Positions 13,681 through 48,300 of a DNA stretch of 56,588 nucleotides are shown one piece after another. The notes under the pieces were generated by a model, which did no database searches, was not told where the DNA came from, and was given only the letters and a program-made list of their open reading frames with translations. The number at the start of each line of letters is the position of its first letter. The first letter of the stretch is position 1. The position numbers were made by a program, and so were the translations under genes. Source of the stretch: Dehalococcoidia bacterium (GTDB lineage Bacteria > Chloroflexota > Dehalococcoidia > Lucifugimonadales > UBA3495); contig JAJEIA010000012.1 in the NCBI GenBank assembly GCA_022823505.1, positions 1-56,588 on the forward strand, given 5' to 3'.

Positions 13681-13761
13681 CGATCCGTCTAGCGAGACCG
13701 ATGAGGCCCCATTACCATTGTCTGCCATACGGTTATGTACGGCCGAATCAGGAAGCAGACA

Positions 13762-15192
13762 ATGCAAGACCGCCCAGACCCCGCGTCAGCCTGGCACGCA
13801 GCGCTTGGACGCTTACAGCTCGAAATCCCTCAGGAGCAGTTCAATACTTTCCTCCGGCCTTGCGCCGGTCTCCGCTGGGACGGTGATTGCCTGGTGGTGG
13901 GGGCGGCAACCACCTTCGCGGTGTCGTGGCTCGAATTGCCGCTCCACCTGGATATGGCGCGGGAGGCGGTTGCGAAAACGGCTGGCGCGCAGTCGAGCGT
14001 CCGCTACCAGGCGACGGCGGCAAAGTCCCCGGACGCCACATCCGCGGCTTCGGTGCACCCGATAACTGCGGAGCCGGCGGCTCGTCGTACGGATCCGATG
14101 GCTCCCCACGAGGATCAGTCCGACCGGGGGGTTGCAACTGCTCGGCACGGCAGCCAACCCGGGCAAGCGGCTGGGCTCAACCCACGGTATACCTTCGACA
14201 ATTTCGTCGTCGGCGAGAGCAATCAGCTCGCCTACCACGCCGCCCGAGCCATCAACGCGGATAACGGTGGATCGGCGCCGGGTTACAACCCGCTGCTGCT
14301 GTACGCCGGCTCCGGGATGGGCAAAACCCATCTGCTGCACGCCATCGGAAATCTGGCCCGTGAGCGGGAAATCTCGGTCCGCTACGTGACATCGGAGCAG
14401 TTCACCAACGAGTTTGTTTCGGCGATCAACCGCCGGGCTATGCCGGAATTTCGCGAACGCTACCGGGCCGTGGACCTGCTGCTGCTGGACGACGTGCAAT
14501 TCCTGGTGGGCAAGGAGCAAACCCAGGAGGCACTGTTTCACACGTTCAACGACCTGCACCAGGCCGGAGCGCAGATCGTGCTGACCAGCGACCGTCCGCC
14601 CGAGACCATCACCCCGTTGGAGGAGAGGCTTCGTTCCCGGTTCCAATGGGGGTTGGTGGCTGACATCCGGCCGCCGTCGCTGGAAACGCGGATGGCGATG
14701 CTGCATTCCTGGGCATCCGATCACGACTGTGACGTACCTTTTCCCGTGCTGGACGTCATCGCACAGCGGGTGAGCCGAAACGTGCGCCAACTACTGGGAG
14801 CCTTCAACCGGGTGGTAGCGGCGTCTCAGTTGTTGAGCTCCCCGATGACGGCCGAAAGCGTCTCCGCACAACTGGACGCCATTGTGGGACCGGACGTCCG
14901 CGCTGAGGTGACCGCACAGCAGGTGTTGGCGAAGGTGGCCCAACATTGCGGACTGACTGCGGAACAGATCCTCGGCCGGAACCGCACGGCGGCGGTGGCG
15001 CAGGCGCGGCAGGTGACGATGTACCTGTTGGTATCCGAACTCGGCATGGCCCCGACCGGCGCCGGGCGGTTCCTGGCGAACCGAAACCACAGCACGGTCA
15101 TCCACGGGGTTGGCAAGGTGCGAAAAGCCATGGAAACTGACGGCAGGCTCAGACAAGCGATCCTGGCGATCACCGAATCCCTGTCCAACTGA
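13762..15192 (+). CDS. dnaA: Chromosomal replication initiator protein DnaA
   Basis: A 476-residue DnaA. Domain I is the first 70 or so residues, followed by a low-complexity linker to about residue 140. The AAA+ domain begins at NPRYTFDNFVVGESN and has Walker A GSGMGKTH (183-190), Walker B LLLLDDVQFL, sensor LTSDRPPE and the arginine-finger region EERLRSRFQWG. Domain IV ends with NRNHSTVIHG, the DnaA-box-binding signature (GRDHTTVxH in most species, here varied). AGGAAG at 13750-13755 fixes the start at 13762. It binds ATP and opens the origin. dnaN, recF and gyrase genes are absent beside it, which is unusual. Confidence 0.93.
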   Translation: MQDRPDPASAWHAALGRLQLEIPQEQFNTFLRPCAGLRWDGDCLVVGAATTFAVSWLELPLHLDMAREAVAKTAGAQSSVRYQATAAKSPDATSAASVHPITAEPAARRTDPMAPHEDQSDRGVATARHGSQPGQAAGLNPRYTFDNFVVGESNQLAYHAARAINADNGGSAPGYNPLLLYAGSGMGKTHLLHAIGNLAREREISVRYVTSEQFTNEFVSAINRRAMPEFRERYRAVDLLLLDDVQFLVGKEQTQEALFHTFNDLHQAGAQIVLTSDRPPETITPLEERLRSRFQWGLVADIRPPSLETRMAMLHSWASDHDCDVPFPVLDVIAQRVSRNVRQLLGAFNRVVAASQLLSSPMTAESVSAQLDAIVGPDVRAEVTAQQVLAKVAQHCGLTAEQILGRNRTAAVAQARQVTMYLLVSELGMAPTGAGRFLANRNHSTVIHGVGKVRKAMETDGRLRQAILAITESLSN

Positions 15193-16699: not shown

Positions 16700-18067
16700 T
16701 CAGGTTCGAAGCAGGTCCGCCAGGCCGGTGACCGGTTTTCCTTCCTCCAAGCTGTCCAGGCGGGTAAGGACTTCCGCCGTCGTCGCTGCGGTCAGCGCCG
16801 GCGCGGCGCAGTCGCGGAACTTCTCGCGGACGTCCTCCATTGTCACGCCGCGCAGGGCCCCGCTGCTGGCGCGGTGCGCCTGCTGTCGCAGCGTGCTGCC
16901 GTCCTTCATCCGGACCTCGACCTGGTGGTAGCCTTCGGTCCAGCTCGGTTGACCCTCGTTGCCCGGGATGCGGCGCATGTCGATGCGCGGGATCAGCGCC
17001 TGGGCTTCGGAACGCATCACCTGATCGTCCGTGAAGGACTGCAACCCGACCCGCTGGTCCAGCAAGGCGGCCGCCAGGCAATACTGCATGCTGAACTTGC
17101 CCTCCAATGATGACACCGGGCGGGAGTGGATCAACGAGCGAGGCGGATCGAAGTCCACCATCACGTCGATCCGGTCCACCGAGGCGGGGTCAATGCCGCC
17201 CTGGGACAGCAGTTCAAAGGTGGCATCCAGCGCCAGATGGGCACTGCCGCAGCAGGGGTACTTCTTGATCTCGATTCCAGACTCCACCAGGTAGCACTTG
17301 TTTCCCAGGTTCTGGACCACCTGCTCGCCATCGAAACCCTGGCCGCCGGAGAAGGCGCGGATGAACCCGAACCTTCCTTCCAGGGCGTCCTCGCTGGCGG
17401 TGAAACCTTCCCGCACCAGTTTGGCAGCGACGACCCCGGCGCGCGCGGCGTCCCCGGCGTGGAACGGCTTGGTCATGGTCCCGAAGTTCTGTCGCAGACC
17501 AGAAGCCTGGGAGGCCGCCAGGGAGACGGCCATGGCCGTCTGCTCCGGGTCCAGCGCCATGATCCTGCTGGCCGCCGCCGCCGCTCCCACCGCACCCAGG
17601 GGTCCGGTGGGATGCCATCCCAGGTCATCGTAGTAGGCTTCGCTCAAAGCCTCACCCACGGCGCAGGCAACCTCGAAGCCGGTCATGTAGCCAACCAACA
17701 TGTCCTTGCCGGACGCGCCAAACTCCTCGGCCACCGCGAGGGATGCGGGCAACAGAACCGCGGTGGGATGCGTCTTGGTGATCTGGGTAATGTCGTCGTA
17801 GTCGAGGGCGTGGGCCATTGCGCCGTTGACGAGGGCGGCGTTGGCCGCAGAGGTCTTGAATCCCCGACCCACCACGCTGGCCGTTGGGGAGGCTCCCTCA
17901 GCCGAGACGTAGCGGCAAAGAATGTCCGACAGGGATTCTCGGGATCCGGCGAGCATACACGCCAGACAATCCATGATCGCTCCCTTGGCTGCCTCGATGG
18001 CGTCGGGCGGGAAGTCCTCGATGTCGGTGCCGGTGACGTATTCGGAGATCCGCTTGGTGATGTTCAT
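16700..18067 (-). CDS. MmgE/PrpD family protein
   Basis: A 455-residue member of the family that includes 2-methylcitrate dehydratase PrpD and iminodisuccinate epimerase. Typical stretches are DCLACMLAGSRES near the N-terminus, NGAMAHALDYDD (around residue 80), GWHPTGPLGAVGAAAAASRI and KKYPCCGSAHLALDA. The start at 18067 is chosen because AGGAG lies about 8 bases before it and MNITKRISEYV is the usual beginning. No other methylcitrate-cycle gene is present, so the substrate is probably a different hydroxy or unsaturated acid. It is transcribed divergently from the alpha/beta hydrolase at 18450. A second family member is at 22131-23486. Confidence 0.88.
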   Translation of the reverse strand: MNITKRISEYVTGTDIEDFPPDAIEAAKGAIMDCLACMLAGSRESLSDILCRYVSAEGASPTASVVGRGFKTSAANAALVNGAMAHALDYDDITQITKTHPTAVLLPASLAVAEEFGASGKDMLVGYMTGFEVACAVGEALSEAYYDDLGWHPTGPLGAVGAAAAASRIMALDPEQTAMAVSLAASQASGLRQNFGTMTKPFHAGDAARAGVVAAKLVREGFTASEDALEGRFGFIRAFSGGQGFDGEQVVQNLGNKCYLVESGIEIKKYPCCGSAHLALDATFELLSQGGIDPASVDRIDVMVDFDPPRSLIHSRPVSSLEGKFSMQYCLAAALLDQRVGLQSFTDDQVMRSEAQALIPRIDMRRIPGNEGQPSWTEGYHQVEVRMKDGSTLRQQAHRASSGALRGVTMEDVREKFRDCAAPALTAATTAEVLTRLDSLEEGKPVTGLADLLRT

Positions 18068-18191
18068 GGATCCGCTCCTGGCGCGCATGGCTTGTCGCGT
18101 GGTTGTCGTCCGCCTGCTCGTAACCCGAATGTATGCCATTTTGGTGCGGTGTCAAGTGGTTTGCGGACCCCAAGCGAACCCCGCTTTGAAC

Positions 18192-22130: not shown

Positions 22131-23486
22131 TTATGCGGTAGCAAGCAAGGCGGTCAGTTCGCCCACGTCCGGCATCTGATCCAGGCGGCTGACCGCTCCG
22201 ATCACCCGCTGGACTCCACCGGCGCCGAGGGTTTCCCGCGATAGCAGGTCGAACTTACCCAGCAGTTCCTCCCGGCCGGCGGGATTGGAGAAGTCGCCGC
22301 GCTGGGAGGTGACTTCCGCGCGGCGGAGTCGTCCGTCGGCAAGTTGCACGGCGACCCGCGCCGCCGGGTAGTCGTAGCGGCGCAGGTTCATCTCGGGGTC
22401 GGAATCGAGCGAGACGCGCGCGGCCAGTTCCTGGATATCGGCGTTGTCGACCCGCTCTGGCAGGAAAGCCGTGACATCGGTCCGCCCGTAGCAGATGGCC
22501 GCGGCGACCGCATAGGGAATCGAGAACTTCGCGGCCAGCATGTTGTCCGGATGCGGATCGGCCATGATTCCGGCAATTGGCGGCGCGGTGACGGCGATGT
22601 GTTTTACGTCCGAAGGTGTAAAAGCCTCTTCGCGAAGCAGGTCCTGCACCGCGTCCAGGACGGGGTGGTTGTACAGGCAGCAGGCGTGCAGCTTGAAGTA
22701 GTTGCGCTCGATACGAAACTCGCCGGGCACACCCAGGCCGTCGATCACGGCATCCGGGTCGAAGCCGTCCCCCAAAAAGGTCCGGTACAGGTCCGCCGGC
22801 CCGTCGGCGATGGCGGTGTACCCGCATTGGCTGAGGTGGGCCGCCATGATGCCCTGAAAACCGGACCGGCCGGGGTACAGGTTGCGGACGGTGGCGCCCT
22901 CGATGCACGGGGTCCACGTGTTCGCCGGGCTCATGGACATGGCCAGGTTCATCGCCGTCCTGGTCTCCCCCGCGTCGAAGCCCATGAGCCGCGCCGCCGC
23001 CGCTGCGGTGCCGATGGTTCCCCAGGTGCCGTGGGAGTGCACCTCGGCCTTGACCGTGGTCGCCGTGCCGATGCGCGAAATGACCTCGTAGCCGACGATG
23101 ATGCTCGCCAGCACCTCCTGGCCGCTGCAGCCCAAATCCTCGCCGACGGCGATAGCACCGGGCGTCACGTGGATGGACGGGTGCCCGCCGCCCAGTCGAT
23201 TGCCCTCGTCCATCTCCAGCGACACGCCGGCCGTGGCGTTCACCATGGTGGCCCAGACCGGCTGAACGCGGTTGGCGTGACCGATCACGGTTGCCTTACC
23301 CGGACCGCTCATGGTCGCGGCGAGCCCGGCGAAGTTGGCGTTTTCCGACAGGCGACTACCCGCCAGCATCGCGCCAACGGTGTCCAGCACCACATCCTTG
23401 GCGGCAGCAATGGTGGTCGGATGCAGGTCCTCCCAACGCGTTTCGGCGACAAATTCGGCCAAGAGGTCGAGGTAATCCTGGGCCAT
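22131..23486 (-). CDS. MmgE/PrpD family protein
   Basis: A 451-residue relative of 2-methylcitrate dehydratase. Typical stretches are VVLDTVGAMLAGS, NATAGVSLEMDEGNRLGG (the DYDD position of the other copy is changed to EMDEG), GTWGTIGTAAAAARLMG and FKLHACCLYNHPVLDA. It starts 8 bases after the stop of the dehalogenase-like gene and its ribosome binding site (AGGTAGG) lies in that junction, so the two are one operon. The two MmgE/PrpD copies of the window are clearly divergent and probably act on different substrates. Confidence 0.88.
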   Translation of the reverse strand: MAQDYLDLLAEFVAETRWEDLHPTTIAAAKDVVLDTVGAMLAGSRLSENANFAGLAATMSGPGKATVIGHANRVQPVWATMVNATAGVSLEMDEGNRLGGGHPSIHVTPGAIAVGEDLGCSGQEVLASIIVGYEVISRIGTATTVKAEVHSHGTWGTIGTAAAAARLMGFDAGETRTAMNLAMSMSPANTWTPCIEGATVRNLYPGRSGFQGIMAAHLSQCGYTAIADGPADLYRTFLGDGFDPDAVIDGLGVPGEFRIERNYFKLHACCLYNHPVLDAVQDLLREEAFTPSDVKHIAVTAPPIAGIMADPHPDNMLAAKFSIPYAVAAAICYGRTDVTAFLPERVDNADIQELAARVSLDSDPEMNLRRYDYPAARVAVQLADGRLRRAEVTSQRGDFSNPAGREELLGKFDLLSRETLGAGGVQRVIGAVSRLDQMPDVGELTALLATA

Positions 23487-23494
23487 GATCGCAC

Positions 23495-24373
23495 CTACCT
23501 GGTGAAGAATTCATGGAGCAGCCGATACGCGTCGTCCGGCAACTCCTCGGCGATGTAGTGCCCGCAGGGGAGCGACTGCCCCTCCACGTTGTTGGAATAG
23601 TTGCGCCACACTCCGAGGACGTCCTGGGTACGGCCCACGAAACCCCGGTCGCTCCACAGCGCCAGGTGGGGGCAGTTCACCTTGTTGTTGAAGTCGGCCT
23701 CGTCGTGTTCCAGGTCGATGCTCGCGCCAGCGCGGTAGTCCTCGCAGGCGCCGTGGATGGCGGCGGGGTTGCTGAAGCAGCGCACGTATTCCTCGACCGC
23801 CTCGGGCGGGAACACCTCCTCGGCGTTGCGCTCGCGCATGAACCGCGAGCGGATGTAGTAGTCGGGGTCGGCGCCGATGACGCGCTCGGGGAAGTCGTAG
23901 GGCTGGATCAGGAAGAACCAGTGGTGCGTGTTGGTGGCCATCTCCTTGTCAACGATGCTGAACATGTGACGCGTGGGCACGATGTCCAGCGTCGCCAGAC
24001 GCAAGACGCGTTCCGGGTGGTCCTTGGTCAACCGGTGGGCTACGCGGGCGCCCCGGTCATGGCTGCCCAGGAAGAAGGTGTCGAACCCCAGGTGGCTCAT
24101 GGCGTCCACCAGGTCCTGCGCCTGGGCCCGCTTGGAGTGATTGAAGTGGTCGGGGCTGCCCTGGGGTTTGCCGCTGTCGCCGTAGCCGCGCAGGTCAGCG
24201 CATACCACCGTGAAGTCTTCCGCCAGGCGGGGCGCGATCTTGTGCCACATGGTGTGGGTTTGCGGGTACCCATGCAGCAACAGCAGCGGAGGCCCACTTC
24301 CGGCCTTCACCAGGTTCACCTGCTCGCCGCTGGTATCGACCAGCATGCCTTCAAATCCCTCGAACAAAGCCAT
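23495..24373 (-). CDS. Candidate fluoroacetate/haloacetate dehalogenase (alpha/beta hydrolase)
   Basis: A 292-residue alpha/beta hydrolase whose active site matches fluoroacetate dehalogenase. The nucleophile position is Asp106 in GSHDRGARVAHR, not Ser; Arg107 and Arg110 follow, as in the carboxylate-binding pair. Asp130 (LATLDIVPT) and His272 (PCGHYIAEE) complete the triad. His151-Trp152 (HWFFLIQPYD) and Tyr213 (CEDYRA) match the halide pocket. Spacing Asp106-Asp130-His151 equals that of the Rhodopseudomonas enzyme as I recall it (110-134-155). The reaction would release halide from 2-haloacids. The start at 24373 is supported by AAGGAG 7 bases upstream. It is the first gene of an operon with an MmgE/PrpD protein. 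Confidence 0.82.
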   Translation of the reverse strand: MALFEGFEGMLVDTSGEQVNLVKAGSGPPLLLLHGYPQTHTMWHKIAPRLAEDFTVVCADLRGYGDSGKPQGSPDHFNHSKRAQAQDLVDAMSHLGFDTFFLGSHDRGARVAHRLTKDHPERVLRLATLDIVPTRHMFSIVDKEMATNTHHWFFLIQPYDFPERVIGADPDYYIRSRFMRERNAEEVFPPEAVEEYVRCFSNPAAIHGACEDYRAGASIDLEHDEADFNNKVNCPHLALWSDRGFVGRTQDVLGVWRNYSNNVEGQSLPCGHYIAEELPDDAYRLLHEFFTR

Positions 24374-24477
24374 CTTGCGCTCCTTGGCATCTCTTGATTC
24401 GGCACGAGCCACTGGGGCGTCGGTCGGTACATAATGCGGCCGGGCGCGGATGATGTAAATACCTTGCCCGGTTACCT

Positions 24478-24506
24478 TTGACACCATATTCCCGCCCGTG
24501 TACCGT
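24478..24506 (+). promoter_or_regulatory. Sigma-70-type promoter of the catabolic operon
   Basis: A perfect -35 hexamer TTGACA (24478-24483), a 17-base spacer and TACCGT (24501-24506) as a weak -10. The start codon of the first operon gene is 38 bases downstream. Confidence 0.5.
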
Positions 24507-24543
24507 AACCCGAAACCGCCTGACGGGCCCCTAGAGAGCGCGA

Positions 24544-25716
24544 ATGACAATCACCTCGATATCGAATGACATCGCCCACTACCTGGACGCGGCACAACCC
24601 TTCGTCTCTCGCGTCGACGAATCCGCCGCATGGATCGACGCCGAACGGCGGATGCCGCCCGACCTCGCCGCGGACATGGCGGACGCCGGCTTTTTCCGGC
24701 TGCTGCTGCCCCGGGATTTGGGCGGCGCCGAACTGGCCCATCCCGATTTTCTGAAACTCCTGGAGATGTTTGCGGGAGCCGATGCCAGCGTGGCCTGGTG
24801 CCTGAACCAGAACAACGTCTTCTCAACCAGGTCTACGCGGATGCCGCTTGCCACGGCGCAAGAAATCTGGGGGGAGCAGCGGGCGGTGGTGACCAACGGG
24901 CCACCGGCGGGCGGGTCGAAATCGGTTCCGAGCCCGGGCGGTTTTCGGCTGAGCGGGCACTGGAACTTCAGCAGCGGCAGCGACCACGCCACGTGGATCG
25001 CCGCGCTGGCGCCCGTCATACCTGAGAACGGAGCCGGAGCCGATGGGCGGCCCCCACAAACCCGCCTGCACCTGATGCCCATAGACCAGGTGCGGATGGT
25101 CGACCTGTGGCAGGTCGCGGGACTCCGCGGAACCGGCAGTTTCAGCTTCCAGGTGGACGACCTGTTTGTGCCGGAGGAACACTCCTTCACGCAGGAGGGC
25201 CCGTCGTGGTGTGACCGCCCGCTCTACGGCATTCCCACCACGCTGCTGTTTGCCACCGGTTTTGCCACCGTGGCCCTGGGCGTCGCGCGCAAGAGCCTGG
25301 ACATCGCCATCGACGTGGGCGGCAGCAGGACACCCTACCGCTCCGGCGTGCTGCTCCGCGACCACCAGACCACGCAGCGCACCATCGGCGAGGCTCACGC
25401 GCAACAGAGTTCGGCCCGGGCGTTCCTGAAAGACGCCCACGGTCGGCTCTGGGAGTCGGCCTGCTCCGAGGGTACGCTCACCACCGACGAGCGCATCCAA
25501 CTGCGGGTTGCCGCCACCCATGCCATCCGCACCTCGGCGCAGATCGTGGACGCGGCGTACACCCTGTGCGGGGCCAGCGGCATCTTCCAGACCAATCCGA
25601 TACAACGCAGGTTCCAGGACATCCACGTCATCACCCAGCACGTGCAGGGCCACCACGTGCATTACGAAACTGCGGGCCAGTACCTGCTGGGACTTGACCC
25701 GCAGGGCGTTTTCTAG
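24544..25716 (+). CDS. Acyl-CoA dehydrogenase-like flavoprotein (probable group D monooxygenase)
   Basis: A 390-residue protein with the acyl-CoA dehydrogenase fold: N-terminal helical domain (LLLPRDLGGAELAHPDFL), middle beta domain (GGFRLSGHWNFSSGSDHATW, residues 138-157) and C-terminal helical domain ending in QRRFQDIHVITQH. The SGHWNFSSG motif and the terminal RxxxDxH-type motif are closer to flavin-dependent hydroxylases of the HpaH/DszC group than to true acyl-CoA dehydrogenases. It may therefore oxygenate a ring or nitrogen substrate with reduced flavin. It is the first of four tightly spaced plus-strand genes. Confidence 0.82.
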   Translation: MTITSISNDIAHYLDAAQPFVSRVDESAAWIDAERRMPPDLAADMADAGFFRLLLPRDLGGAELAHPDFLKLLEMFAGADASVAWCLNQNNVFSTRSTRMPLATAQEIWGEQRAVVTNGPPAGGSKSVPSPGGFRLSGHWNFSSGSDHATWIAALAPVIPENGAGADGRPPQTRLHLMPIDQVRMVDLWQVAGLRGTGSFSFQVDDLFVPEEHSFTQEGPSWCDRPLYGIPTTLLFATGFATVALGVARKSLDIAIDVGGSRTPYRSGVLLRDHQTTQRTIGEAHAQQSSARAFLKDAHGRLWESACSEGTLTTDERIQLRVAATHAIRTSAQIVDAAYTLCGASGIFQTNPIQRRFQDIHVITQHVQGHHVHYETAGQYLLGLDPQGVF

Positions 25717-25733: not shown

Positions 25734-27152
25734 ATGGCCGCGAATCATGTGGATACGGTCATCGTGGGCGGGCAAATCGTGACCTCGTCGCAGGTGTACG
25801 AGAGTTCAATCGCAATCTCCGGAGAGAAGATTGTTGCCATCGGCCCGGAGAATTACCTGCCGCCGGCCGACCGGTACATTGACGCCAGCGGCAAGTTCGT
25901 GCTTCCGGGCCTGATCGACAGTCATGTGCACCTGGACGGTCACGATGACTACGCCCTGGGCTCGCTGGCTGCGGCGCACGCCGGCCTGACCACGCTCGTG
26001 CCTTTCGGCACCTACCAGCTGGAGGGCGACGAAACGCTGCCCCAGGCTGTCCACCGCACACGCGAAACCGTCGAACGAGCCGCCCTTACCGATTTTGCCT
26101 TCCATTTCATCCTGCAGAACCGGCCCAGCATCCTGTCCGGTCTGCCCGAGGCCGTCGACCTGGGCGTGAAGTCTTTCAAGATGTTCATGACCTACAAGAA
26201 ACGTCCCGGCAGGATGTGCGACGACGACTACATCTGCGAGGCGATGGATCTGGTGGGCCGGGGCGGCGGGGTCCTGCAGCTGCACTGCGAAAGCGGCAAC
26301 ATCATCGAGTACCTCGAAAACAAACTCCTGGGCGAGGGCCACACACACCCGACGGACTTTCCGACGGCGTGTCCCGACTGGGCCGAGGAGGAGGCGATCA
26401 ACCGGGCGGTCAAGATGTCTGCCGCAACCCGGTGCCCGACCTACGTCGTGCACCTCAGCACCCAGTTGGGCCTGGAACGGATCAAGCAGGCCCAGAGCCT
26501 CGGGCAGCGCGTGTGGACTGAGACCTGCCCGCAATACCTGCTGCTTTCGGACGCCCAGATGGCTGAGCGCGGCCCGCTGGCGAAGATAGGCCCGCCGCTT
26601 CGACCCGACGACGGACCCGACCGCGACGCATTGTGGGAAGGTTTGCGCCAGGGTCACGTCTCCATCGTGGCCAGCGACCATTCGCCGCATCCCCAGGAAC
26701 TCAAGCAGCCCGGCTGGGACAACATCTTCGTCGACGCCAACGGAATGTCGGTGCCCTTCGGCTCGCCCGGCATCGAGACCATCGTCCCGTTGATGTACAG
26801 CGAGGGGGTGGTGCAGCGTGGGCTGCCCATCTGGTGGCTGGCCCGGGTCATGGCGGAAAACCCGGCCCGCATCTTCGGCATCTACCCGCGCAAGGGAGTG
26901 ATCCAGGTGGGCTCCGACGCGGACTTTCTAATCCTCGACCCCAACGGCGACCGCATCGTCACCGCCAGCGACCACCACAGCAACGCGGGCTACACCCTGT
27001 TCGAGGGTTGGCGGGTCAACGGCCGCCCCTGGATCACCATGCTGCGCGGCCAGGTGCTGCTGCAGGACGGTGAGATCCAGCAGAACCCGGGATACGGGAC
27101 CTTCATCGAGAGCGGCTCGCCCATCGCTCCTCTCGGCGGTCCGGTTGATTAG
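25734..27152 (+). CDS. Dihydropyrimidinase/hydantoinase family cyclic amidohydrolase
   Basis: A 472-residue binuclear amidohydrolase. Metal ligands are visible in order: HVH in DSHVHLDG (around residue 64), the carboxylated lysine in VKSFKMFMTYK (around 148), LHCESG, YVVHLST and Asp in ASDHSPHP. The layout is that of dihydropyrimidinase, D-hydantoinase and allantoinase, which open cyclic amides or ureides. AAGGAGG lies 9 bases before the ATG. It follows the flavoprotein gene by 17 bases and abuts the next gene with no gap, so the products likely act in one pathway. Confidence 0.9.
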   Translation: MAANHVDTVIVGGQIVTSSQVYESSIAISGEKIVAIGPENYLPPADRYIDASGKFVLPGLIDSHVHLDGHDDYALGSLAAAHAGLTTLVPFGTYQLEGDETLPQAVHRTRETVERAALTDFAFHFILQNRPSILSGLPEAVDLGVKSFKMFMTYKKRPGRMCDDDYICEAMDLVGRGGGVLQLHCESGNIIEYLENKLLGEGHTHPTDFPTACPDWAEEEAINRAVKMSAATRCPTYVVHLSTQLGLERIKQAQSLGQRVWTETCPQYLLLSDAQMAERGPLAKIGPPLRPDDGPDRDALWEGLRQGHVSIVASDHSPHPQELKQPGWDNIFVDANGMSVPFGSPGIETIVPLMYSEGVVQRGLPIWWLARVMAENPARIFGIYPRKGVIQVGSDADFLILDPNGDRIVTASDHHSNAGYTLFEGWRVNGRPWITMLRGQVLLQDGEIQQNPGYGTFIESGSPIAPLGGPVD

Positions 27153-28199
27153 ATGAAAATCACCGACGTCCGCGCCGTATACCCCAACTATCGGTACGTC
27201 GTCCCGTCCTGGCGCACCCACTTCTGGCAGATCGTAGTTCGCGTCGAGACGGACGTCGGAACCGTCGGCCTGGGCTACGGCGGCGGCGGCGTGGCCGGTG
27301 TGGAGGTCGTCAACCGCCATTTCCGCGAGCTGCTGCTCAACCGCGAGATCAACAGCCCGGCGGACATCGCGGACACCTGGGACCATCTTTACGAACAATC
27401 GCTGCCCTACGGGCGCAAGGGACTGGCGATGATGGCACTGAGCGGCGTCGACCTCGCGTTGTATGACCTGCTGGCCAAGGCTGAAAACGTGCCGGTGTAC
27501 GAACTCCTGGGCGGCGCGCAGAAACCCAGCGTTCTTGCCTACGCCACGGGCCCCGACTCGGAAGCGTACCGCGACCTGGGCTTTCGCGCCCACAAGTTTC
27601 CCCACCGCTGGGTGGGTGATGCCGATTACGAGACCGCCGCGGCGGCAGCGGCAAGTGCCCGCCGGTTATACGGTTCAGACGCTCGCATCATGGTTGACTG
27701 CTACATGTCCTGGGACACGGAAGTCACCATTCGGATGGCGGACATCCTTTCCGAATACCGGCTCTACTGGTACGAGGACGTGCTGACCCCGGACAACCTG
27801 GCCGGTCAGGCGGACCTGCGCGCGGTGGCGGAGCCCACGCTCATTGCCGGCGGGGAGCATGAGTTCACGCACTTCGGTTTTGCAGACATCGCCCGCGCCA
27901 ATGCTCTGGGCCTGTGGCAACCCGACATCACCTGGTGCGGCGGGATCACGGCCGGTCTTCGCATCATCGACCTCGCCCGGGATGCCGGGATCCCGGTTTC
28001 GCCGCACCGCGGCGCCGAGGTCTGGGGACTGCATCTCATCGCTGCCTCCGACTGGGCGGACTTCGCCGAGTTCCACTCCGACCACATCCGTTCGCCCCGG
28101 GACGTGCTCTGGCTCGACGAACCGGAGCCGCAGGACGGCTATATCGCGCCGTCCGATCTACCGGGCTTCGGCGTCACCCTGAACGAGGAAATGCTGTAA
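27153..28199 (+). CDS. Mandelate racemase/enolase superfamily enzyme
   Basis: A 348-residue enolase-superfamily protein. The N-terminal capping domain is followed by the barrel with metal ligands Asp in MVDCYMSWD, Glu in YWYEDVLTPDN and Glu in AGGEHEFTH. Asp in QPDITWCGG and His in PVSPHRG form the Asp-His general base dyad of the mandelate racemase subgroup. Members abstract the alpha-proton of a carboxylate and racemise or dehydrate sugar acids and amino-acid derivatives. Its ATG directly follows the stop of the hydantoinase gene. Enolase-superfamily paralogs are reported as strongly expanded in SAR202-type Chloroflexi. Confidence 0.9.
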   Translation: MKITDVRAVYPNYRYVVPSWRTHFWQIVVRVETDVGTVGLGYGGGGVAGVEVVNRHFRELLLNREINSPADIADTWDHLYEQSLPYGRKGLAMMALSGVDLALYDLLAKAENVPVYELLGGAQKPSVLAYATGPDSEAYRDLGFRAHKFPHRWVGDADYETAAAAAASARRLYGSDARIMVDCYMSWDTEVTIRMADILSEYRLYWYEDVLTPDNLAGQADLRAVAEPTLIAGGEHEFTHFGFADIARANALGLWQPDITWCGGITAGLRIIDLARDAGIPVSPHRGAEVWGLHLIAASDWADFAEFHSDHIRSPRDVLWLDEPEPQDGYIAPSDLPGFGVTLNEEML

Positions 28200-28201
28200 C
28201 C

Positions 28202-29383
28202 ATGGCCGGTCCACTGAACGCCTTCGTACCAGACAGCAGCGCATACCTGGCCGGCGCGGAGGCCGGCGCGTTATCCGGCCTCACCTTCGCGGCCAAGGAC
28301 ATCTTTGACATCGCCGGGCACGTCACCGGCTGCGGCAACCCCCATTGGCTGGCGACCCACGGTCCCGCAGAGTCGACGGCCTGGGTGGTGCAGCGATTGG
28401 TGGAGGCCGGCGCCGCCATGGTAGGCAAGACCATTACGGACGAACTGACCCGTGGCATCTTTGGCGAGAACATGCACTACGGCACGCCGGTGAATCCAAA
28501 GGCGCCGGGCCGGGTACCCGGCGGCTCATCCAGCGGGTCGGCGTCGGCCGTGGCCGGGGAGTTGGTCGACTTTGCCCTGGGCTCGGACACCGGCGGCTCG
28601 GTGCGGGTTCCGTCCAGTTTCTGCGGACTCTACGGATTGCGCCCGACACATGGGAGGATCCCGCTGGACGGCATGCTGCTGCAGGCTCCTTCCTTCGACA
28701 CCATCGGCTGGTTCGCCCGGGACGCCGAGACGTTCGCCCGTGTGGGCTCGGTGATACTGCCACAGGGCCCATCGGTTGAACGTGCGCAACGCCTGGTCAT
28801 CGCCGACGACGCCTGGGACCTTGCCGAGCCGGCCACACGGGCCGCGCTGGAACCGGCTCTTGCGAAGCTCGGCGCGCTGTTCGCCTCGTCGTCGAAGGTG
28901 CGGCTTTCGCCAACCGGTCTGGAGGAGTGGTCGGGTCACCAGCAGGTGCTACAGAGCAGGGAGGCCTGGGAGTCGGCCCGGGACTGGATCGACCAGGTCA
29001 ACCCGACCTTCAGCTTCGAGGTCTCGGACCGTTACGCCCTGGCTCGCTCGGTAACCGACGAGCAGATTGTCGTCGCTCAGGCCGGCCGGGACGCCGTCAA
29101 TGCACGGATGAACGAGGTTTTCGACGGTGGCGACGCAGTGGTCTGCCTACCGACGACGGTCGCGCCGGCTCCGCCGCTGGGTCAGCGCGTTTCGGAGCGT
29201 CACACCCTCCGGCTACGCAACAGCGCCCTCACCTCGATAGCCGGAAACACCGGCCGGCCGCAGATCAGCTTGCCGCTGGCCGAGGTCGATGGCCTGCCCG
29301 TTGGCCTGTCCCTGCTGGGAGACTACGGGGCCGACGAGCGATTGATCGAGTTGGCGGGGGAAATGGGCCGATTGCTCGAATGA
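28202..29383 (+). CDS. Amidase signature family hydrolase
   Basis: A 393-residue amidase. The Ser-cisSer-Lys triad is visible: Lys32 in TFAAKDIFD, Ser109/110 in GGSSSGSASA and the nucleophile Ser133 in GSDTGGSVRVPSS. The length is at the short end for the family, and AtzE/AtzF-type and biuret-type amidases are similar. It starts two bases after the stop of the enolase-superfamily gene and closes the four-gene operon. In context it may cleave the linear amide or carbamoyl product of the hydantoinase-like enzyme; this is inferred. Confidence 0.9.
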   Translation: MAGPLNAFVPDSSAYLAGAEAGALSGLTFAAKDIFDIAGHVTGCGNPHWLATHGPAESTAWVVQRLVEAGAAMVGKTITDELTRGIFGENMHYGTPVNPKAPGRVPGGSSSGSASAVAGELVDFALGSDTGGSVRVPSSFCGLYGLRPTHGRIPLDGMLLQAPSFDTIGWFARDAETFARVGSVILPQGPSVERAQRLVIADDAWDLAEPATRAALEPALAKLGALFASSSKVRLSPTGLEEWSGHQQVLQSREAWESARDWIDQVNPTFSFEVSDRYALARSVTDEQIVVAQAGRDAVNARMNEVFDGGDAVVCLPTTVAPAPPLGQRVSERHTLRLRNSALTSIAGNTGRPQISLPLAEVDGLPVGLSLLGDYGADERLIELAGEMGRLLE

Positions 29384-31597: not shown

Positions 31598-33151
31598 TCA
31601 GTCCTCCTGTGCCGGGCTCGCGGCCGGGCGGAGCGCAGTTTCGGGACGGGTGCTGGCTGGCACAGCCTGCTCTTCGCGATGAGTGGGCAGGGCCGACAAA
31701 AAGAGCGCGACCGACAACGCCCCGATCATGGTGAAGAAGGCGTATCTCATCCCCACCGTGAACGCCGTTCCCACTCCCGATGCTGCGCCGTGGCGCACGG
31801 CATCGAGGCTGGGCTCGTAGCCCATGGAGCCCATGGTGGCGGTCACGATGGCGGTGGCAACGGCCACGCTGACCACGTTGCCGGCGTTGCGGATCAGGTT
31901 GACCAGCGCCGAAATAACTCCGTGGCTCTCCCGTTCCACCGCGCTCAGTATGGAGCTCGAGTTGGGGGAGTAAAAGGTCCCCATCCCGCTGCTGGTGAGC
32001 ATCAGGCCGGGGATCACCTGGAACAGCGAGGATTCGGCGGTGGCCTGGGAGAGAATGGCGATGCCCGTGGTCGACAGGATCAGGCCGGTGACCGTGAACT
32101 TGCGCCAGCCGTAACGATCGGAAAGGCGGCCGCTCAGCGGCCCGAGGATCGCCATGCACAGGGCTCCGGGGACCACGCAAAGACCCGCCACGGACGGGCT
32201 GTAGCCGAGAACGTTCTGCAAGTAGAACGGGGTCATGAACAGGATCGCCGAGCTGCCGATGAACATGAGGTAGTTCGCCGTCACGCCCAGGAAAAAATTA
32301 CGCCGACGGAACAGCCGCAGATTCAGCATTGGGCTGGCGATGCGGAGTTCCCACCAGATGAACCCCGCCAGGAGCACCACGAAGGCCCCGGCGGCGCCCA
32401 GTATCGGCGGGGAAGTCCAACCGGTGCGGTGGGCGTTGGTGATGCCCAGCAGCAACGCCAGCAGGGCGCTGGACGACAGGAACGCCCCCAACCAGTCGAA
32501 CCCACTTCGTCCCGGTTCGCGAACCGGACGCGTTTGGTCTGCGCTGGTCAGGACTGCGACGCACATCACGATGCTGATGGTCACCATGGGGACGGTGGCG
32601 AAGAACACGGAGCGCCATCCGAAGGCGTCGACCAGAAAGCCGCCCAAAGCCGGGCCGGCAACCGCGCCGGTTCCGACCATGGTCATGATGAGGCCGATGG
32701 CCTTGCCGCGCTCATTGGGCGGGAACGCGCCGATCATTATCGCCATGCCGGTGCCCTGGGTCATGGCCGCCCCGGTTCCCTGCAGGATGCGTGAAATAAT
32801 CAATATGCCCAGGTCAGTGGACGTCCCCGCCGCGACGGAGCCGGCGATGGTCACCACCGAGCCAATGATGTACACGCGCTTGGACGTGATGATGTCCGCC
32901 AGTCGGCCCATGGGCAGCAACAGCGCGATGATCGTCATGGCATACCCGATCACCAGCCACTGCACGCTGGGGATGTCAGTCTGGAAATGGGTCGCGATGG
33001 TCGGAAGCGCTACACCCACGCTTCCGTGGTCGACCACGGAGGCAAAGGTCCCCACCGCCAGGGTGGCGAAGGCGTACCATTTATAGTGGCGGCTTCGGGA
33101 TAGCGACGAAATCACGAGCGCTTGACCATGGGATCTCTGAGTCGCGGTCAC
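31598..33151 (-). CDS. MFS transporter, DHA2 (EmrB/QacA) family
   Basis: A 517-residue carrier with about 14 hydrophobic segments. Typical features are SVVDHGSVGVALPTIA in the first helix, SVQWLVIGYAM, the GRLADIITSKRVYIIG loop and the motif C-like GAVAGPALGGFLVDAFGWR in helix 5. DHA2 members export drugs or metabolites with protons. The start is a GTG at 33151 whose GTGA overlaps the stop of the phosphotriesterase-like gene, which implies coupled translation. Confidence 0.88.
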   Translation of the reverse strand: MTATQRSHGQALVISSLSRSRHYKWYAFATLAVGTFASVVDHGSVGVALPTIATHFQTDIPSVQWLVIGYAMTIIALLLPMGRLADIITSKRVYIIGSVVTIAGSVAAGTSTDLGILIISRILQGTGAAMTQGTGMAIMIGAFPPNERGKAIGLIMTMVGTGAVAGPALGGFLVDAFGWRSVFFATVPMVTISIVMCVAVLTSADQTRPVREPGRSGFDWLGAFLSSSALLALLLGITNAHRTGWTSPPILGAAGAFVVLLAGFIWWELRIASPMLNLRLFRRRNFFLGVTANYLMFIGSSAILFMTPFYLQNVLGYSPSVAGLCVVPGALCMAILGPLSGRLSDRYGWRKFTVTGLILSTTGIAILSQATAESSLFQVIPGLMLTSSGMGTFYSPNSSSILSAVERESHGVISALVNLIRNAGNVVSVAVATAIVTATMGSMGYEPSLDAVRHGAASGVGTAFTVGMRYAFFTMIGALSVALFLSALPTHREEQAVPASTRPETALRPAASPAQED

Positions 33152-34107
33152 TCGCCGGCGAAGAAGCGTCGGGGATTTTCCACGGTGATCTGATGAATGT
33201 CCTCGTCCGACGCTCCCATTTCCCTCAGGCGGGGCAGCACGTAACGGGGGATGAAGTTGTAGCCGTCGGGGTTGGCCCGCCGCCGTTGCTCCTGCACCTC
33301 GGCTCCGTGGCGCGCCTTGGGCACGGAGTAGTCATGGGAGAGGAATATGCGGTGCGTGAACCCGGCATCCATCAACGCCTTGGCAACCTCGGTTCGCTGT
33401 TCCCAGTTCGGCGTTCCGGGGCGCGTCCCGCCGGGATAACGGTCCAGACCCAGCCACACCCCCTTATTCAGCAGGCCAAGGAGGTATTCCAGGTCGGTGT
33501 CATCGTTGCTGTGCCCGATGTACACCCGGTCCAGATCGACGCCCTCCTCTTCCAGGATGGCCACCTGGGCGTCGCCGATGCGTTCCGGCGACCACGTGTG
33601 GGTCGAAATGGGGACTCCGGTGGATTTCTGCGCACGCGCCGCGGCCCGCAGCACGTTTGCCTGTGGGGCGGTGATTCCGCCCTCGTCGCTGGCCACCTTG
33701 ATGATGCCAGCCTTGATCCCCGTGCCCTCGATGCCCTCCTCGATTTCGCGGACGTAAAGCTCGGCGATGACGTCGGGAGAGATTTCACCGAAAGGCCTAG
33801 GCACGGCCAGATGGTTTCCCGTCGCGACGACCACCTGCATGTCGCTGCCCAGCGCCACTTCGCGGATCAGCTGCACGTCCCGTCCAAGGTCGAAGGTGCT
33901 CACGTCGATTATGGTTCGGACTCCATCCTCCCGCACGGCGCGCATGGCGGCGATGGACTGTTCGCGGATGCCGTCGCGGTCGATGATCTCCGGGTAGGTG
34001 TGGCGGAGGCCGGCGGCGTTGGTTCCCACATGCTCGTGGCTCAGGGTGAACCCCAGGTCGTCGGTATCGATGGGGCCCATCACGCTGTTCACGGTTGCCA
34101 TTGCCAT
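33148..34107 (-). CDS. Phosphotriesterase family (PTE/PLL) hydrolase
   Basis: A 319-residue TIM-barrel hydrolase. Metal ligands are visible: HEH in LSHEHVG (24-26), the carboxylated lysine in GIIKVASDEG, His in STHTW, His in YIGHSND and Asp in FLSHDYS. The family includes organophosphate hydrolases and lactonases; the natural substrate is most often a lactone. The motif GxRxxxP-like PRFFAGE ending is complete. It is the first gene of the operon with the DHA2 exporter and ThDP enzyme, and is divergent from the carboxymuconolactone-decarboxylase-like gene. Confidence 0.88.
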   Translation of the reverse strand: MAMATVNSVMGPIDTDDLGFTLSHEHVGTNAAGLRHTYPEIIDRDGIREQSIAAMRAVREDGVRTIIDVSTFDLGRDVQLIREVALGSDMQVVVATGNHLAVPRPFGEISPDVIAELYVREIEEGIEGTGIKAGIIKVASDEGGITAPQANVLRAAARAQKSTGVPISTHTWSPERIGDAQVAILEEEGVDLDRVYIGHSNDDTDLEYLLGLLNKGVWLGLDRYPGGTRPGTPNWEQRTEVAKALMDAGFTHRIFLSHDYSVPKARHGAEVQEQRRRANPDGYNFIPRYVLPRLREMGASDEDIHQITVENPRRFFAGE

Positions 34108-45341: not shown

Positions 45342-48300
45342 ATGAGTCGAACATCCATTACGCTGCGCATGGGAAGGTCCCGGATCCTAGTCATTCTGGC
45401 CGTGCTGGTCGCTGTCGCGGCTGTGTTTGCCCAGCATCCATCACCGGCAGCCGCATACGAGGGTCGCCTGGCCATCGAGTGCAACAAGAATCCGGTCTCG
45501 GAGGGCGACTCCTTCCGGCTGCACATGGTCAAGGACTACACCTTGTGGAAAGAGTCCATACAGATACGACAGATGACGATGAAGGTGTACTGGTCCACGA
45601 AGGCGGGCTCCGCCGATCCTTCTGATTACAGTGTTTTGCGACACGTAGGCCAGGCCAGCAACGGCTTTCAAAGCTGGAACGGACGGATGGGACGTACCTT
45701 CTACACAAAGGAAGACAATCTGTCCGAGCTCACCGAAAGTTTCAAGGTCGAAGCAGAAAACGCTGACAGCGACGGCCCTGATGGAGAATGCACCATTGAA
45801 ATCAGCGATGACGACGGCCCGGGCCCGTACCAAACCGAGCTGAATTGGAGCGGTGGGAGCGACGGCTTCCAACGGGGTGACGTCATCCAGTTCCAGATTG
45901 ATTTCACTGAGCCCGTGACGGTCAGGGGAGAAGAACCCACGTTGGGGTTTCACCTGGGCCCGGGCACCGGTGCGGCCAACCGTTTCGCCACCCTTTACAC
46001 GGGAGGTTCGCGCAACCGGTTTTTCCGATATGAAGTGCAACCGGGAGACTTCGATCCTGACGGGATCTCCGTTCCGTCGGAGGAGATCACCGGTGGCAGG
46101 ATGGTGACGACCCAAACCAACCGCCCGGTCAACAAACTCGTCCACCCCTGGGTCGGTGGCGAGAATTACCGGGTGTTCGGCCAGACCCGTGTCACCAAGG
46201 TTTCCATGGCGTCCACACCGGAGCGCGGCGACACGTACCGCCCCGGTGAGCACATCCAGGTCACGGTGCAATTTGACCGGAGAGTGCAGGTAGACGGCGA
46301 CGTAGCCTTGCAATTGAAGGTTGGCGATGGCGCCGACTCGTTGGTTGAGGCGCCGTACCACTCCGGATCCGGCACCCGGAAGTTGATTTTCCGGTACCGG
46401 GTGGGCGCCTACGACAACGACGCCAACGGGGTAAGCGTTGCAGCTGGTGGCCAGAACGACGCCGGCCAGCGAACCGGGATCGTGGGCACCGGGAAAATCG
46501 TGGAAATGGTCGGCGGCAACGCGGTCGACGTGCAAACGGACTACGGCGCGCTCTCCGATCAATCCAGGCACAAGGTGGACGGGCGGGCATACGTCAAGCA
46601 GATCGCCGTGACCTCGACGCCGGCCAACGGCGAACACTACGTTTCCGGCGAATGGATCAAGTTCACGCTGACCTTCGACCGGTTGTTGATTGTGGCGCCT
46701 ACGCCGGCGTTCATCTTCAAGCTTGGCGACCAGGAAGAAACAGCTCGCTTCGAGCGCCAAACGACCGTCAGTACGCTGGTGTTCAGCTACCAGGTGGACG
46801 ATGACGATGTAGATGAGGACGGCATCTCGGTTCCCGAGCAGGAGGGATTCCGAGGGGATGGGGTTATCGGGAGCGACTACCCAAGGCAGCGCGTGTACGA
46901 GAGGATCCCCAGGCTGCCGCACCAGGCCGGCCATCGGGTCAACGGCGTGCTTCCCACCGTCGTCTCCAGCGAGATCATCTCCGAACCGGCCAGCGGAGAC
47001 ACCTACCGCAACGGAGAAACCATCGAGATTGCGCTGGAGTTCGATGACGCGGTGGACGTCGTGGGCCAACCGCAAGTCCGCCTGCTTGTCGATGGCCATG
47101 GCAATCCGGAGCGGAGGGCAGTTTACAGCCTTGGATCCGGCACCGACACTCTCGTCTTCGCCTACACCGTACTGCTTACCGACGTGGACCACGACGGCGT
47201 CGCCCTGATGGAACGAGACAGCGGAGGCTTTGAGCCGTCGACCACGCACGTCTACCAGGCGGGCACCGAGAACTCATTGACCGGACACATCGTCGGCTTC
47301 GACGATACCGCCGGCCATCGGGTCGACGGACGCCCCCAGGTTACCGCCACAACCATCACTTCGTCGGCGGCCCAGGGCGGCGTCTACCGCCCGGGCGAGA
47401 CCATCAACATCTCCCTGAGCTACGAAGAATCCGTTGTGGTGGAGGGCACGCCGTCCATCGCGGTGGAGATCGGCGATCACCTCGCCGAGGCGACCTACCG
47501 CAGCGGGTCCGGCACCAGCACGCTCGTCTTCGGCTATGACGTGCAGGACCACGATCGGGACGACGACGGCCTCGCCGTGCCTGCCGGCACTGATGGAGGC
47601 TTCCACGACGGGAGCATCTACTCCGCCGGCCGGGAGATTGAACTGGACGCAATCTACCCCGGGCTCGATAACCAGGAAGGTCACAAGATCGCGGGCAAGG
47701 CCGTCGTTGCGTCCATCTGGGTCGAGTCCAACCCCGGGGACGACGACACCTACGAGCTCGGCGACACAATCCAGGTGTTGGTGCGCTTTGACCACGACAT
47801 GACGGTGACGGGGACGCCCCAGATATCCCTGCAACTCGGCAGTTCGACCGTCGCGGCCGTCTTCCAGGGCGTTCAGGATGGCGACGACTACTCCCTGACG
47901 GCCACCGGCAGCGTCCTGGCCTTCGCCTACACGGTACAGGCCGGCGATGAGGACAACGACGGAATCTCGGTGGTCGCCAACTCGCTGGACCTGCACGGCG
48001 GCGCCATCGTGGACACTGACGGCAATGAGCCGCTCCTTGGCCACGAGGCTGTCACCTTTGCGGGTCACCTGGTGGGCATCGTTCCTCCGGAGTTCGCCAG
48101 CGCCCGAACCTCTCAGGACGGGCGGCAGGTGATCGTCACGTTCAGCGAGCCCGTGAACGTCCGATCCGACCTGCGCACCCTCGGCTCATTCACGGGGGTC
48201 GACACCGCGGTGTACCTGCGCACGCTCATCGACGTGTTCACCGACGGGCACCGCATCCATACCCGCGGTGCCACAATTTCGGGCACTGATCTGACCCTGA

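What the first reader, a model, noticed from the sequence alone, without database searches (positions are those of the whole stretch)
23495..24373. Candidate fluoroacetate/haloacetate dehalogenase with complete active-site layout
The nucleophile position of this alpha/beta hydrolase is Asp in HDRGAR rather than Ser, followed by both carboxylate-binding arginines; the Asp130/His272 pair and the His-Trp and Tyr halide pocket are all present with spacing equal to the known enzyme as I recall it. Its operon partner is an MmgE/PrpD protein, which is not a known dehalogenase neighbour.
Basis: partly seen in the sequence, partly recalled or inferred. Interest (0 to 1): 0.7.

Follow-up and report, generated by a model that had tools for sequence, protein, structure and literature searches.

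The report
Haloacid dehalogenase in marine SAR202 bacteria
The gene most likely encodes an ordinary enzyme that removes a halogen atom from small acids such as chloro- or fluoroacetate; it belongs to a known family, and what is new is mainly its conserved neighbourhood in a group of marine bacteria, at least one of which lives in a sponge.

Summary
The ORF at 23495-24373 (-) is a 292-residue alpha/beta hydrolase with Asp106 at the nucleophile elbow. R107, R110, D130, H151, W152, Y213 and H272 align with the catalytic and halide-pocket residues of RPA1163 and Delftia H1. The closest solved relative (57% identity) is Nostoc Alr0039/NOS0089, listed in a review as a defluorinase; the tree puts the SAR202 clade as its sister (96/91). 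It is a fluoroacetate/haloacetate dehalogenase family member; the substrate is open. One reservation: the cap-helix Trp (H1 Trp180, RPA1163 Trp185), reported critical in H1, is missing here and in 12 of 12 genus relatives. 9c9f, titled fluoroacetate dehalogenase D4B, also lacks it, so absence does not exclude activity. The genome is SAR202-type Dehalococcoidia (inferred from relatives). The gene is in 12 of 13 other genus members, each time beside the same MmgE/PrpD gene. The pairing predates the genus: a decayed dehalogenase relic sits at that spot in another genus whose MmgE/PrpD gene is intact. Five genomes have the MmgE/PrpD gene without a dehalogenase match. The partner is a neighbour, not a proven co-enzyme. 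New member of a known kind, modest interest.

The parts
23495..24373 (-). fluoroacetate/haloacetate dehalogenase family protein, 292 aa; D106, R107, R110, D130, H151, W152, Y213, H272
22131..23486 (-). MmgE/PrpD family protein, start 8 bases after the dehalogenase stop; nearest solved relatives are iminodisuccinate epimerase and cis-aconitate decarboxylase, both remote
   Evidence: 36.8 bits against a cut-off of 950 for the 2-methylcitrate dehydratase model
24374..24543 (.). 170-base shared upstream region between the dehalogenase and the divergent flavin-enzyme gene; ribosome-binding-like AAGGAG before the dehalogenase start
   Evidence: sequence
24544..25716 (+). acyl-CoA-dehydrogenase-fold flavin enzyme, best NCBIfam match HsaA monooxygenase (158.8 bits, cut-off 450); conserved divergent neighbour
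25734..27152 (+). dihydropyrimidinase/hydantoinase-like amidohydrolase (369.3 bits against cut-off 393.25)
27153..28199 (+). enolase-superfamily (MR/MLE) protein
28196..29383 (+). amidase (PRK08310, 510 bits, over the cut-off of 391)

Best explanation
It is a hydrolytic 2-haloacid dehalogenase of the fluoroacetate dehalogenase family. Asp106 attacks the halogen-bearing carbon of a small 2-halocarboxylate held by Arg107 and Arg110. The leaving halide is held by His151, Trp152 and Tyr213. His272, paired with Asp130, activates water to hydrolyse the ester intermediate and release the 2-hydroxy acid (glycolate from a haloacetate). Shown here: the residues, their alignment, the modelled fold, the relationship to assayed enzymes, and purifying selection. 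Inferred: the mechanism, carried over from the family. Not shown: activity, and which halide. My guess is chloro- or bromoacetate or a slightly larger 2-haloacid in nature, with fluoroacetate turnover likely but possibly slow because the cap Trp is missing.
For: phmmer: 3QYJ E 2.3e-117; the 22 best solved sequences (244 bits and more are not all shown here; lowest of the 22 is 265.8 bits) are mostly named fluoroacetate dehalogenase, then a drop to 140 bits for a chain named soluble epoxide hydrolase. Identity 56.7% to NOS0089, 50.7% to the aligned part of DAR3835, 48.6% to FA1, 44.3% to H1, 44.2% to RPA1163. All eight core residues match these five enzymes. NOS0089 and DAR3835 defluorinate fluoroacetate and difluoroacetate, and the residue roles are described (passages of PMC11022551). 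Tree: the SAR202 clade (100/100) is sister to NOS0089 (96/91). AlphaFold2 mean pLDDT 91.4; Foldseek best matches 3qyj, 8sdc, 1y37, TM 0.92-0.95. dN/dS 0.038-0.107 for the 8 of 12 genus loci compared. The genome also has three matches over the cut-off of the type II haloacid dehalogenase model.
Against: The cap Trp (H1 Trp180) is missing in the query and in 12 of 12 genus sequences; randomising that position in H1 returned almost only Trp, and the authors call it critical (passages of PMC12955510). They call Met246 critical too; the query has Val246, but so has DAR3835, and NOS0089 has Ile, so this one does not discriminate. Gly241 of H1 is Ser241 here and in 32 of 32 SAR202 sequences of that alignment. 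No fluoride riboswitch was found (150 of 718 candidates scored). The only CrcB fluoride exporter match is on another contig, whereas the plasmid-borne H1 gene has crcB and a thioesterase gene close by. No activity data exist for this protein.
Confidence: 0.8

Rival explanations
1. A dehalogenase-fold enzyme whose real substrate is not a haloacetate: without the cap Trp the pocket takes a larger 2-halo acid formed inside the neighbouring pathway (flavin oxygenase, hydantoinase, amidase, MmgE/PrpD), and fluoroacetate is at best a side substrate.
For: Cap Trp absent in 12 of 12 genus sequences; smaller residues at that place in RPA1163 let in bulkier 2-fluoro acids (statement in PMC12955510); the gene sits in a conserved catabolic gene block; no fluoride exporter on its contig and no fluoride riboswitch found.
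Against: 9c9f, titled fluoroacetate dehalogenase D4B, lacks the Trp as well; a D4B fluoroacetate dehalogenase (DeHa4) defluorinates mono- and difluoroacetate according to passages of PMC13419579. That 9c9f is DeHa4 is my inference. The block persists without an intact dehalogenase in G022.
Confidence: 0.3
2. An epoxide hydrolase or esterase with a dehalogenase-like sequence.
For: Epoxide hydrolases share Asp-His-Asp and a His/Tyr pair (recalled); own-genome paralog L002 has D, I, R, D, H, S, Y, H at the eight positions. Solved relatives 4bat, 4b9a, 4baz and 4nvr are named epoxide hydrolase or acyltransferase.
Against: The query keeps Arg107 and Trp152, which L002 lacks; it is 57% identical to an assayed defluorinase, while the best chain outside the 22 top relatives that is named epoxide hydrolase scores 140 bits against 394.9. 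The nucleophile is Asp, not Ser.
Confidence: 0.06
3. The dehalogenase and the MmgE/PrpD protein act in sequence in one pathway, e.g. the MmgE/PrpD enzyme isomerises or dehydrates the hydroxy acid made by the dehalogenase.
For: 8-base spacing; adjacent, same strand, in 12 of 12 other genus genomes that have the gene; the thirteenth, G009 (86% complete), lacks a match to both; the relic in G022 shows the pairing predates the genus.
Against: The MmgE/PrpD orthologue occurs in 5 genomes without a dehalogenase match at 1e-50 (G015, G018, G022, G023, G049; 73-96% complete); of 7 non-genus loci with enough upstream sequence, 0 have an intact dehalogenase and 1 a relic. G021 has the dehalogenase and no match to the partner, in a 71%-complete genome.
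Confidence: 0.25

Closest known systems
NOS0089 (Alr0039, Nostoc sp. PCC 7120, PDB 3QYJ)
   Same: 57% identity over 289 residues, same eight core residues, TM 0.93-0.95, sister of the SAR202 clade in the tree; assayed defluorinase (passages of PMC11022551)
   Different: NOS0089 has a Trp on the cap helix and Gly where the SAR202 proteins have Ser241
Fluoroacetate dehalogenase D4B (Delftia acidovorans D4B, PDB 9c9f)
   Same: 50.6% identity over the 267 residues compared, same core residues, also without the cap Trp
   Different: Falls in a separate proteobacterial clade; Gly at position 241
RPA1163 (PDB 3R3U), FA1 (1Y37), H1 of plasmid pUO1
   Same: Same triad, arginines and halide pocket; same fold for RPA1163 and FA1
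   Different: 44-49% identity; cap Trp present; on pUO1, H1 lies near crcB and a thioesterase gene
'Haloacetate dehalogenase' genes of deep-sea Chloroflexi
   Same: Annotation-level report of such genes in Chloroflexi (passages of PMC9088039)
   Different: No residue analysis or neighbourhood in the passages I saw

Membership tests
fluoroacetate/haloacetate dehalogenase (EC 3.8.1.3, alpha/beta hydrolase type) | Asp nucleophile at the elbow (RPA1163 D110, H1 D105) | tested here: met
   D106
fluoroacetate/haloacetate dehalogenase (EC 3.8.1.3, alpha/beta hydrolase type) | His base and second Asp (RPA1163 H280, D134) | tested here: met
   H272, D130
fluoroacetate/haloacetate dehalogenase (EC 3.8.1.3, alpha/beta hydrolase type) | Two carboxylate-binding arginines (R111, R114; roles recalled) | tested here: met
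   R107, R110
fluoroacetate/haloacetate dehalogenase (EC 3.8.1.3, alpha/beta hydrolase type) | Halide pocket His-Trp and Tyr (H155, W156, Y219) | tested here: met
   H151, W152, Y213
fluoroacetate/haloacetate dehalogenase (EC 3.8.1.3, alpha/beta hydrolase type) | Cap-helix Trp (H1 W180, RPA1163 W185); common but not universal, absent from 9c9f | tested here: not met
   Absent in the query; a Trp anywhere in that stretch is found in 0 of 12 genus and 3 of 20 family sequences, and in 5 of 6 solved or characterised enzymes
fluoroacetate/haloacetate dehalogenase (EC 3.8.1.3, alpha/beta hydrolase type) | Groups with assayed members in a tree | tested here: met
   96/91 with NOS0089; deeper forks unresolved
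fluoroacetate/haloacetate dehalogenase (EC 3.8.1.3, alpha/beta hydrolase type) | Homodimer | not tested
   single chain modelled only
fluoroacetate/haloacetate dehalogenase (EC 3.8.1.3, alpha/beta hydrolase type) | Halide release from fluoro- or chloroacetate | not testable with these tools
   needs protein
epoxide hydrolase | Best match to chains named epoxide hydrolase over dehalogenases | tested here: not met
   394.9 bits to 3qyj; 276.1 to 4bat, named probable epoxide hydrolase but inside the dehalogenase group of hits; 140 to 7ac0, soluble epoxide hydrolase
2-methylcitrate dehydratase (for the neighbour, 22131-23486) | Score over the curated PrpD cut-off | tested here: not met
   36.8 bits against 950; superfamily membership only

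The most novel reading that the evidence does not exclude
A hydrolytic dehalogenase has been built into a SAR202 catabolic block (flavin oxygenase, hydantoinase, enolase-type enzyme, amidase, MmgE/PrpD) that breaks down halogenated nitrogen-containing natural products, for example those of sponges. The lost cap Trp would have opened the pocket for a larger 2-halo acid made inside the pathway, and the MmgE/PrpD protein would act on its hydroxy-acid product.
Probability: 0.1. Interest if true: 0.55.

Novelty: new member of a known kind. Interest (0 to 1): 0.27.

Why it matters
It adds a well-supported carbon-halogen hydrolase to an uncultured marine lineage, at least one member of which (bin87, from Aplysina aerophoba) lives in a sponge. 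Together with Delftia D4B it offers a natural test of whether the cap Trp, called critical in H1, is really needed for C-F cleavage. Haloacetate dehalogenase genes in Chloroflexi were already reported from annotation (PMC9088039), so the surprise is limited.

Tried and rejected
Rejected: esterase (nucleophile Asp, not Ser). Rejected: epoxide hydrolase as the main reading (and paralog L002 as contrast). Rejected: recent insertion of the dehalogenase into a pre-existing flavin enzyme-MmgE/PrpD block. G022 looked at first like an empty site, but its spacer holds a 57-codon dehalogenase relic with internal stops (L129:7773-7943, 51% identity, E 2.2e-11 with composition correction off; reversed-protein control at the same cut-off gave nothing), so the gene was lost there. 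Rejected: the neighbour as a 2-methylcitrate dehydratase.

Caveats on counts. The 111 rows mix loci from two searches that partly hold the same contigs, and the 80 genome-contig loci (the best 80 of 424) were fetched with peptide patterns that overlap H151/W152 and H272, so conservation of those columns among them is biased; the characterised enzymes are free of this. The tree used 60 rows: 4 of 12 genus, 20 of 20 distinct family and 28 of 55 proteobacterial rows, 6 solved or characterised enzymes, the query, and one paralog as outgroup, which has a very long branch; deep forks are open. The cap-Trp column is hard to align (one- or two-residue shifts), so I counted any Trp in the stretch facing query 172-187. 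The 25 family rows were reduced to 20 by removing identical ones. Paralogs L003-L020 align poorly in the cap, so only their nucleophile motif is safe. dN/dS was computed for 8 of the 12 genus loci; that against L058, outside the genus (0.184), has dS over 1 and is not used. The plasmid search (362 records, all under 60% identity) was not used further.

Led nowhere: the VIA-align library was not available; the Chan 2010 and 2011 papers and the Farajollahi 2024 paper are not held; the search fluoroacetate + dehalogenase + MmgE gave 0 papers.

Full report
Identity of the gene. The reverse-strand ORF 23495-24373 encodes 292 residues. In Pfam it is only a general alpha/beta hydrolase (PF00561, 93.4 bits), and none of its 17 NCBIfam matches reaches its cut-off. 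Against solved structures the best match is Alr0039 of Nostoc (3QYJ, 2.3e-117), followed by DAR3835 (8sdc, 8sdd), FA1 (1y37), 9c9f and others down to RPA1163. Twenty-two sequences score 265.8 bits or more; three of them are named probable epoxide hydrolase and one putative acyltransferase. The next one, a chain named soluble epoxide hydrolase, scores 140 bits.

Active site. I aligned the protein with RPA1163, NOS0089, DAR3835, FA1 and 9c9f, and in a second alignment also with H1 read from plasmid pUO1. The H1 residue numbers in that translation match those in PMC12955510 (D105, S147, H150, W151, W180, Y213, Q245, M246, H272). The query has D106, R107, R110, D130, H151, W152, Y213 and H272 at the eight core positions. 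In the AlphaFold2 model (29-sequence alignment, mean pLDDT 91.4, pTM 0.92) strand 100-105 is followed by helix 106-118, so D106 is at the nucleophile elbow. Foldseek ranks 3qyj, 8sdc and 1y37 first (TM 0.92-0.95, rmsd 1.5-2.0). I had no coordinates and could not measure the pocket.

The missing tryptophan. H1, FA1, RPA1163, NOS0089 and DAR3835 all carry a Trp in the cap helix; the query reads RFMRERNAEEVF there. A Trp is absent from that stretch in 12 of 12 genus sequences, 17 of 20 family sequences and 54 of 55 proteobacterial ones. In H1, libraries randomised at Trp180 gave back almost only Trp under fluoropropionate selection, and the authors call it critical, together with Met246, which is Val246 in the query but also Val in DAR3835 and Ile in NOS0089; they also note Arg for Trp180 in their family alignment (passages of PMC12955510). 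In RPA1163 the residue lies in the substrate pocket (passages of PMC11465415). Against reading its absence as loss of function: 9c9f, titled fluoroacetate dehalogenase D4B, has no Trp there, and a D4B fluoroacetate dehalogenase, DeHa4, is said to defluorinate mono- and difluoroacetate (passages of PMC13419579; its kinetics with fluoroacetate are mentioned in a passage of PMC12184663). That 9c9f is DeHa4 is my inference.

Relatives. The window is contig C92 of a 3.7 Mb, 87%-complete assembly. The nearest named contigs are metagenome-assembled genomes titled Dehalococcoidia, SAR202 or Chloroflexi, from which I infer the lineage. One of them, bin87 (MPNC, 94% identical), is a SAR202 bin from the sponge Aplysina aerophoba; the source of the others I did not verify. 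At E<=1e-50, 35 of 60 genomes (own included) have a match: 12 of 13 other genus members, 16 of 22 other family members and 6 of 24 of the order. At 65% identity or more it is 26 of 60. In the tree the SAR202 proteins are one clade (100/100), sister to NOS0089 (96/91). Against 8 of the 12 genus loci dN/dS is 0.038-0.107. The gene is therefore maintained.

Neighbourhood. All 12 other genus members with the gene have the MmgE/PrpD gene next downstream on the same strand, with a gap under 190 bases; the thirteenth, G009 (86% complete), lacks a match to both. In the 12 longer loci (L045-L056) the divergent flavin enzyme is present in 12, and the hydantoinase-like gene in 11, the twelfth contig ending too early. 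Outside the genus the two part. The MmgE/PrpD orthologue is found in 23 of 40 genomes (own included) at E<=1e-100, among them five (G015, G018, G022, G023, G049; 73-96% complete) without a dehalogenase match at 1e-50. Of the ten such loci from outside the genus, all fetched, three have under 510 bases upstream of the gene and cannot be judged; of the other seven 0 have an intact dehalogenase within the 8 kb fetched on each side. In G022 the enolase-type gene, hydantoinase-like gene, flavin enzyme and MmgE/PrpD gene keep their order, with about 4.7 kb of other sequence between the hydantoinase-like and flavin genes, and the spacer before the MmgE/PrpD gene holds a decayed dehalogenase end with internal stops. 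So the arrangement is older than the genus, and the partner outlives the dehalogenase. In 9 of 13 other SAR202 loci (L057-L069; in L057 the upstream side is cut off) the gene directly upstream is instead a class-III-aminotransferase-like gene, with transporter-like and CoA-transferase-like genes beyond it (names from my reading of the sequences, not from a model).

Fluoride or chloride. On pUO1 the H1 gene has a thioesterase gene before it and crcB about 1.2 kb after it. Here the one CrcB match and the one FlK-like thioesterase match of the genome are on other contigs, and no fluoride riboswitch was found. The genome has three matches over the cut-off for type II haloacid dehalogenase and a glycolate-oxidase-like protein below its model's cut-off (483.9 against 567.9 bits). 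This leans towards general haloacid use rather than specialised fluoroacetate use, but proves nothing.

Conclusion. Activity, halide preference and the role of the neighbour remain untested. Haloacetate dehalogenase genes in Chloroflexi are already in print (passages of PMC9088039). I found no paper joining fluoroacetate, dehalogenase and MmgE, nor the word dehalogenase in the main texts of the SAR202 papers PMC6946804 and PMC6306507 (term searches only).

Noticed in passing
L129:7773-7943 (genome G022): Decayed remnant of the dehalogenase C-terminus (57 codons, 51% identity, internal stops) between the flavin enzyme and MmgE/PrpD genes.
   Followed up: yes
window 13735-15192 (+): A DnaA protein (Bac_DnaA, 214.8 bits), so the chromosome origin may be near; not checked.
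   Followed up: no
window 16700-18139 (-): A second MmgE/PrpD protein in the same window; the genome has nine matches to the first one, itself included, the other eight at 25-31% identity.
   Followed up: partly
window 33148-34107 (-): A phosphotriesterase-family protein whose relatives (76-77%) lie within about 2.5 kb of the dehalogenase in two other genera (L138, L142).
   Followed up: partly
window 25734-27152 (+): The hydantoinase-like protein is among the most conserved of the block (89-99% in the 11 longer genus loci that hold it; 84% in G022).
   Followed up: no
L058, L060-L065, L067, L068, directly upstream of the dehalogenase: In these 9 of 13 other SAR202 loci the upstream neighbour is a class-III-aminotransferase-like gene, which suggests a different pathway for the same enzyme.
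   Followed up: partly
window 45342-48659 (+): 1105-residue ORF without any Pfam match at 1e-5; overlapped by long reverse-strand ORFs, so it may not be the real gene.
   Followed up: no
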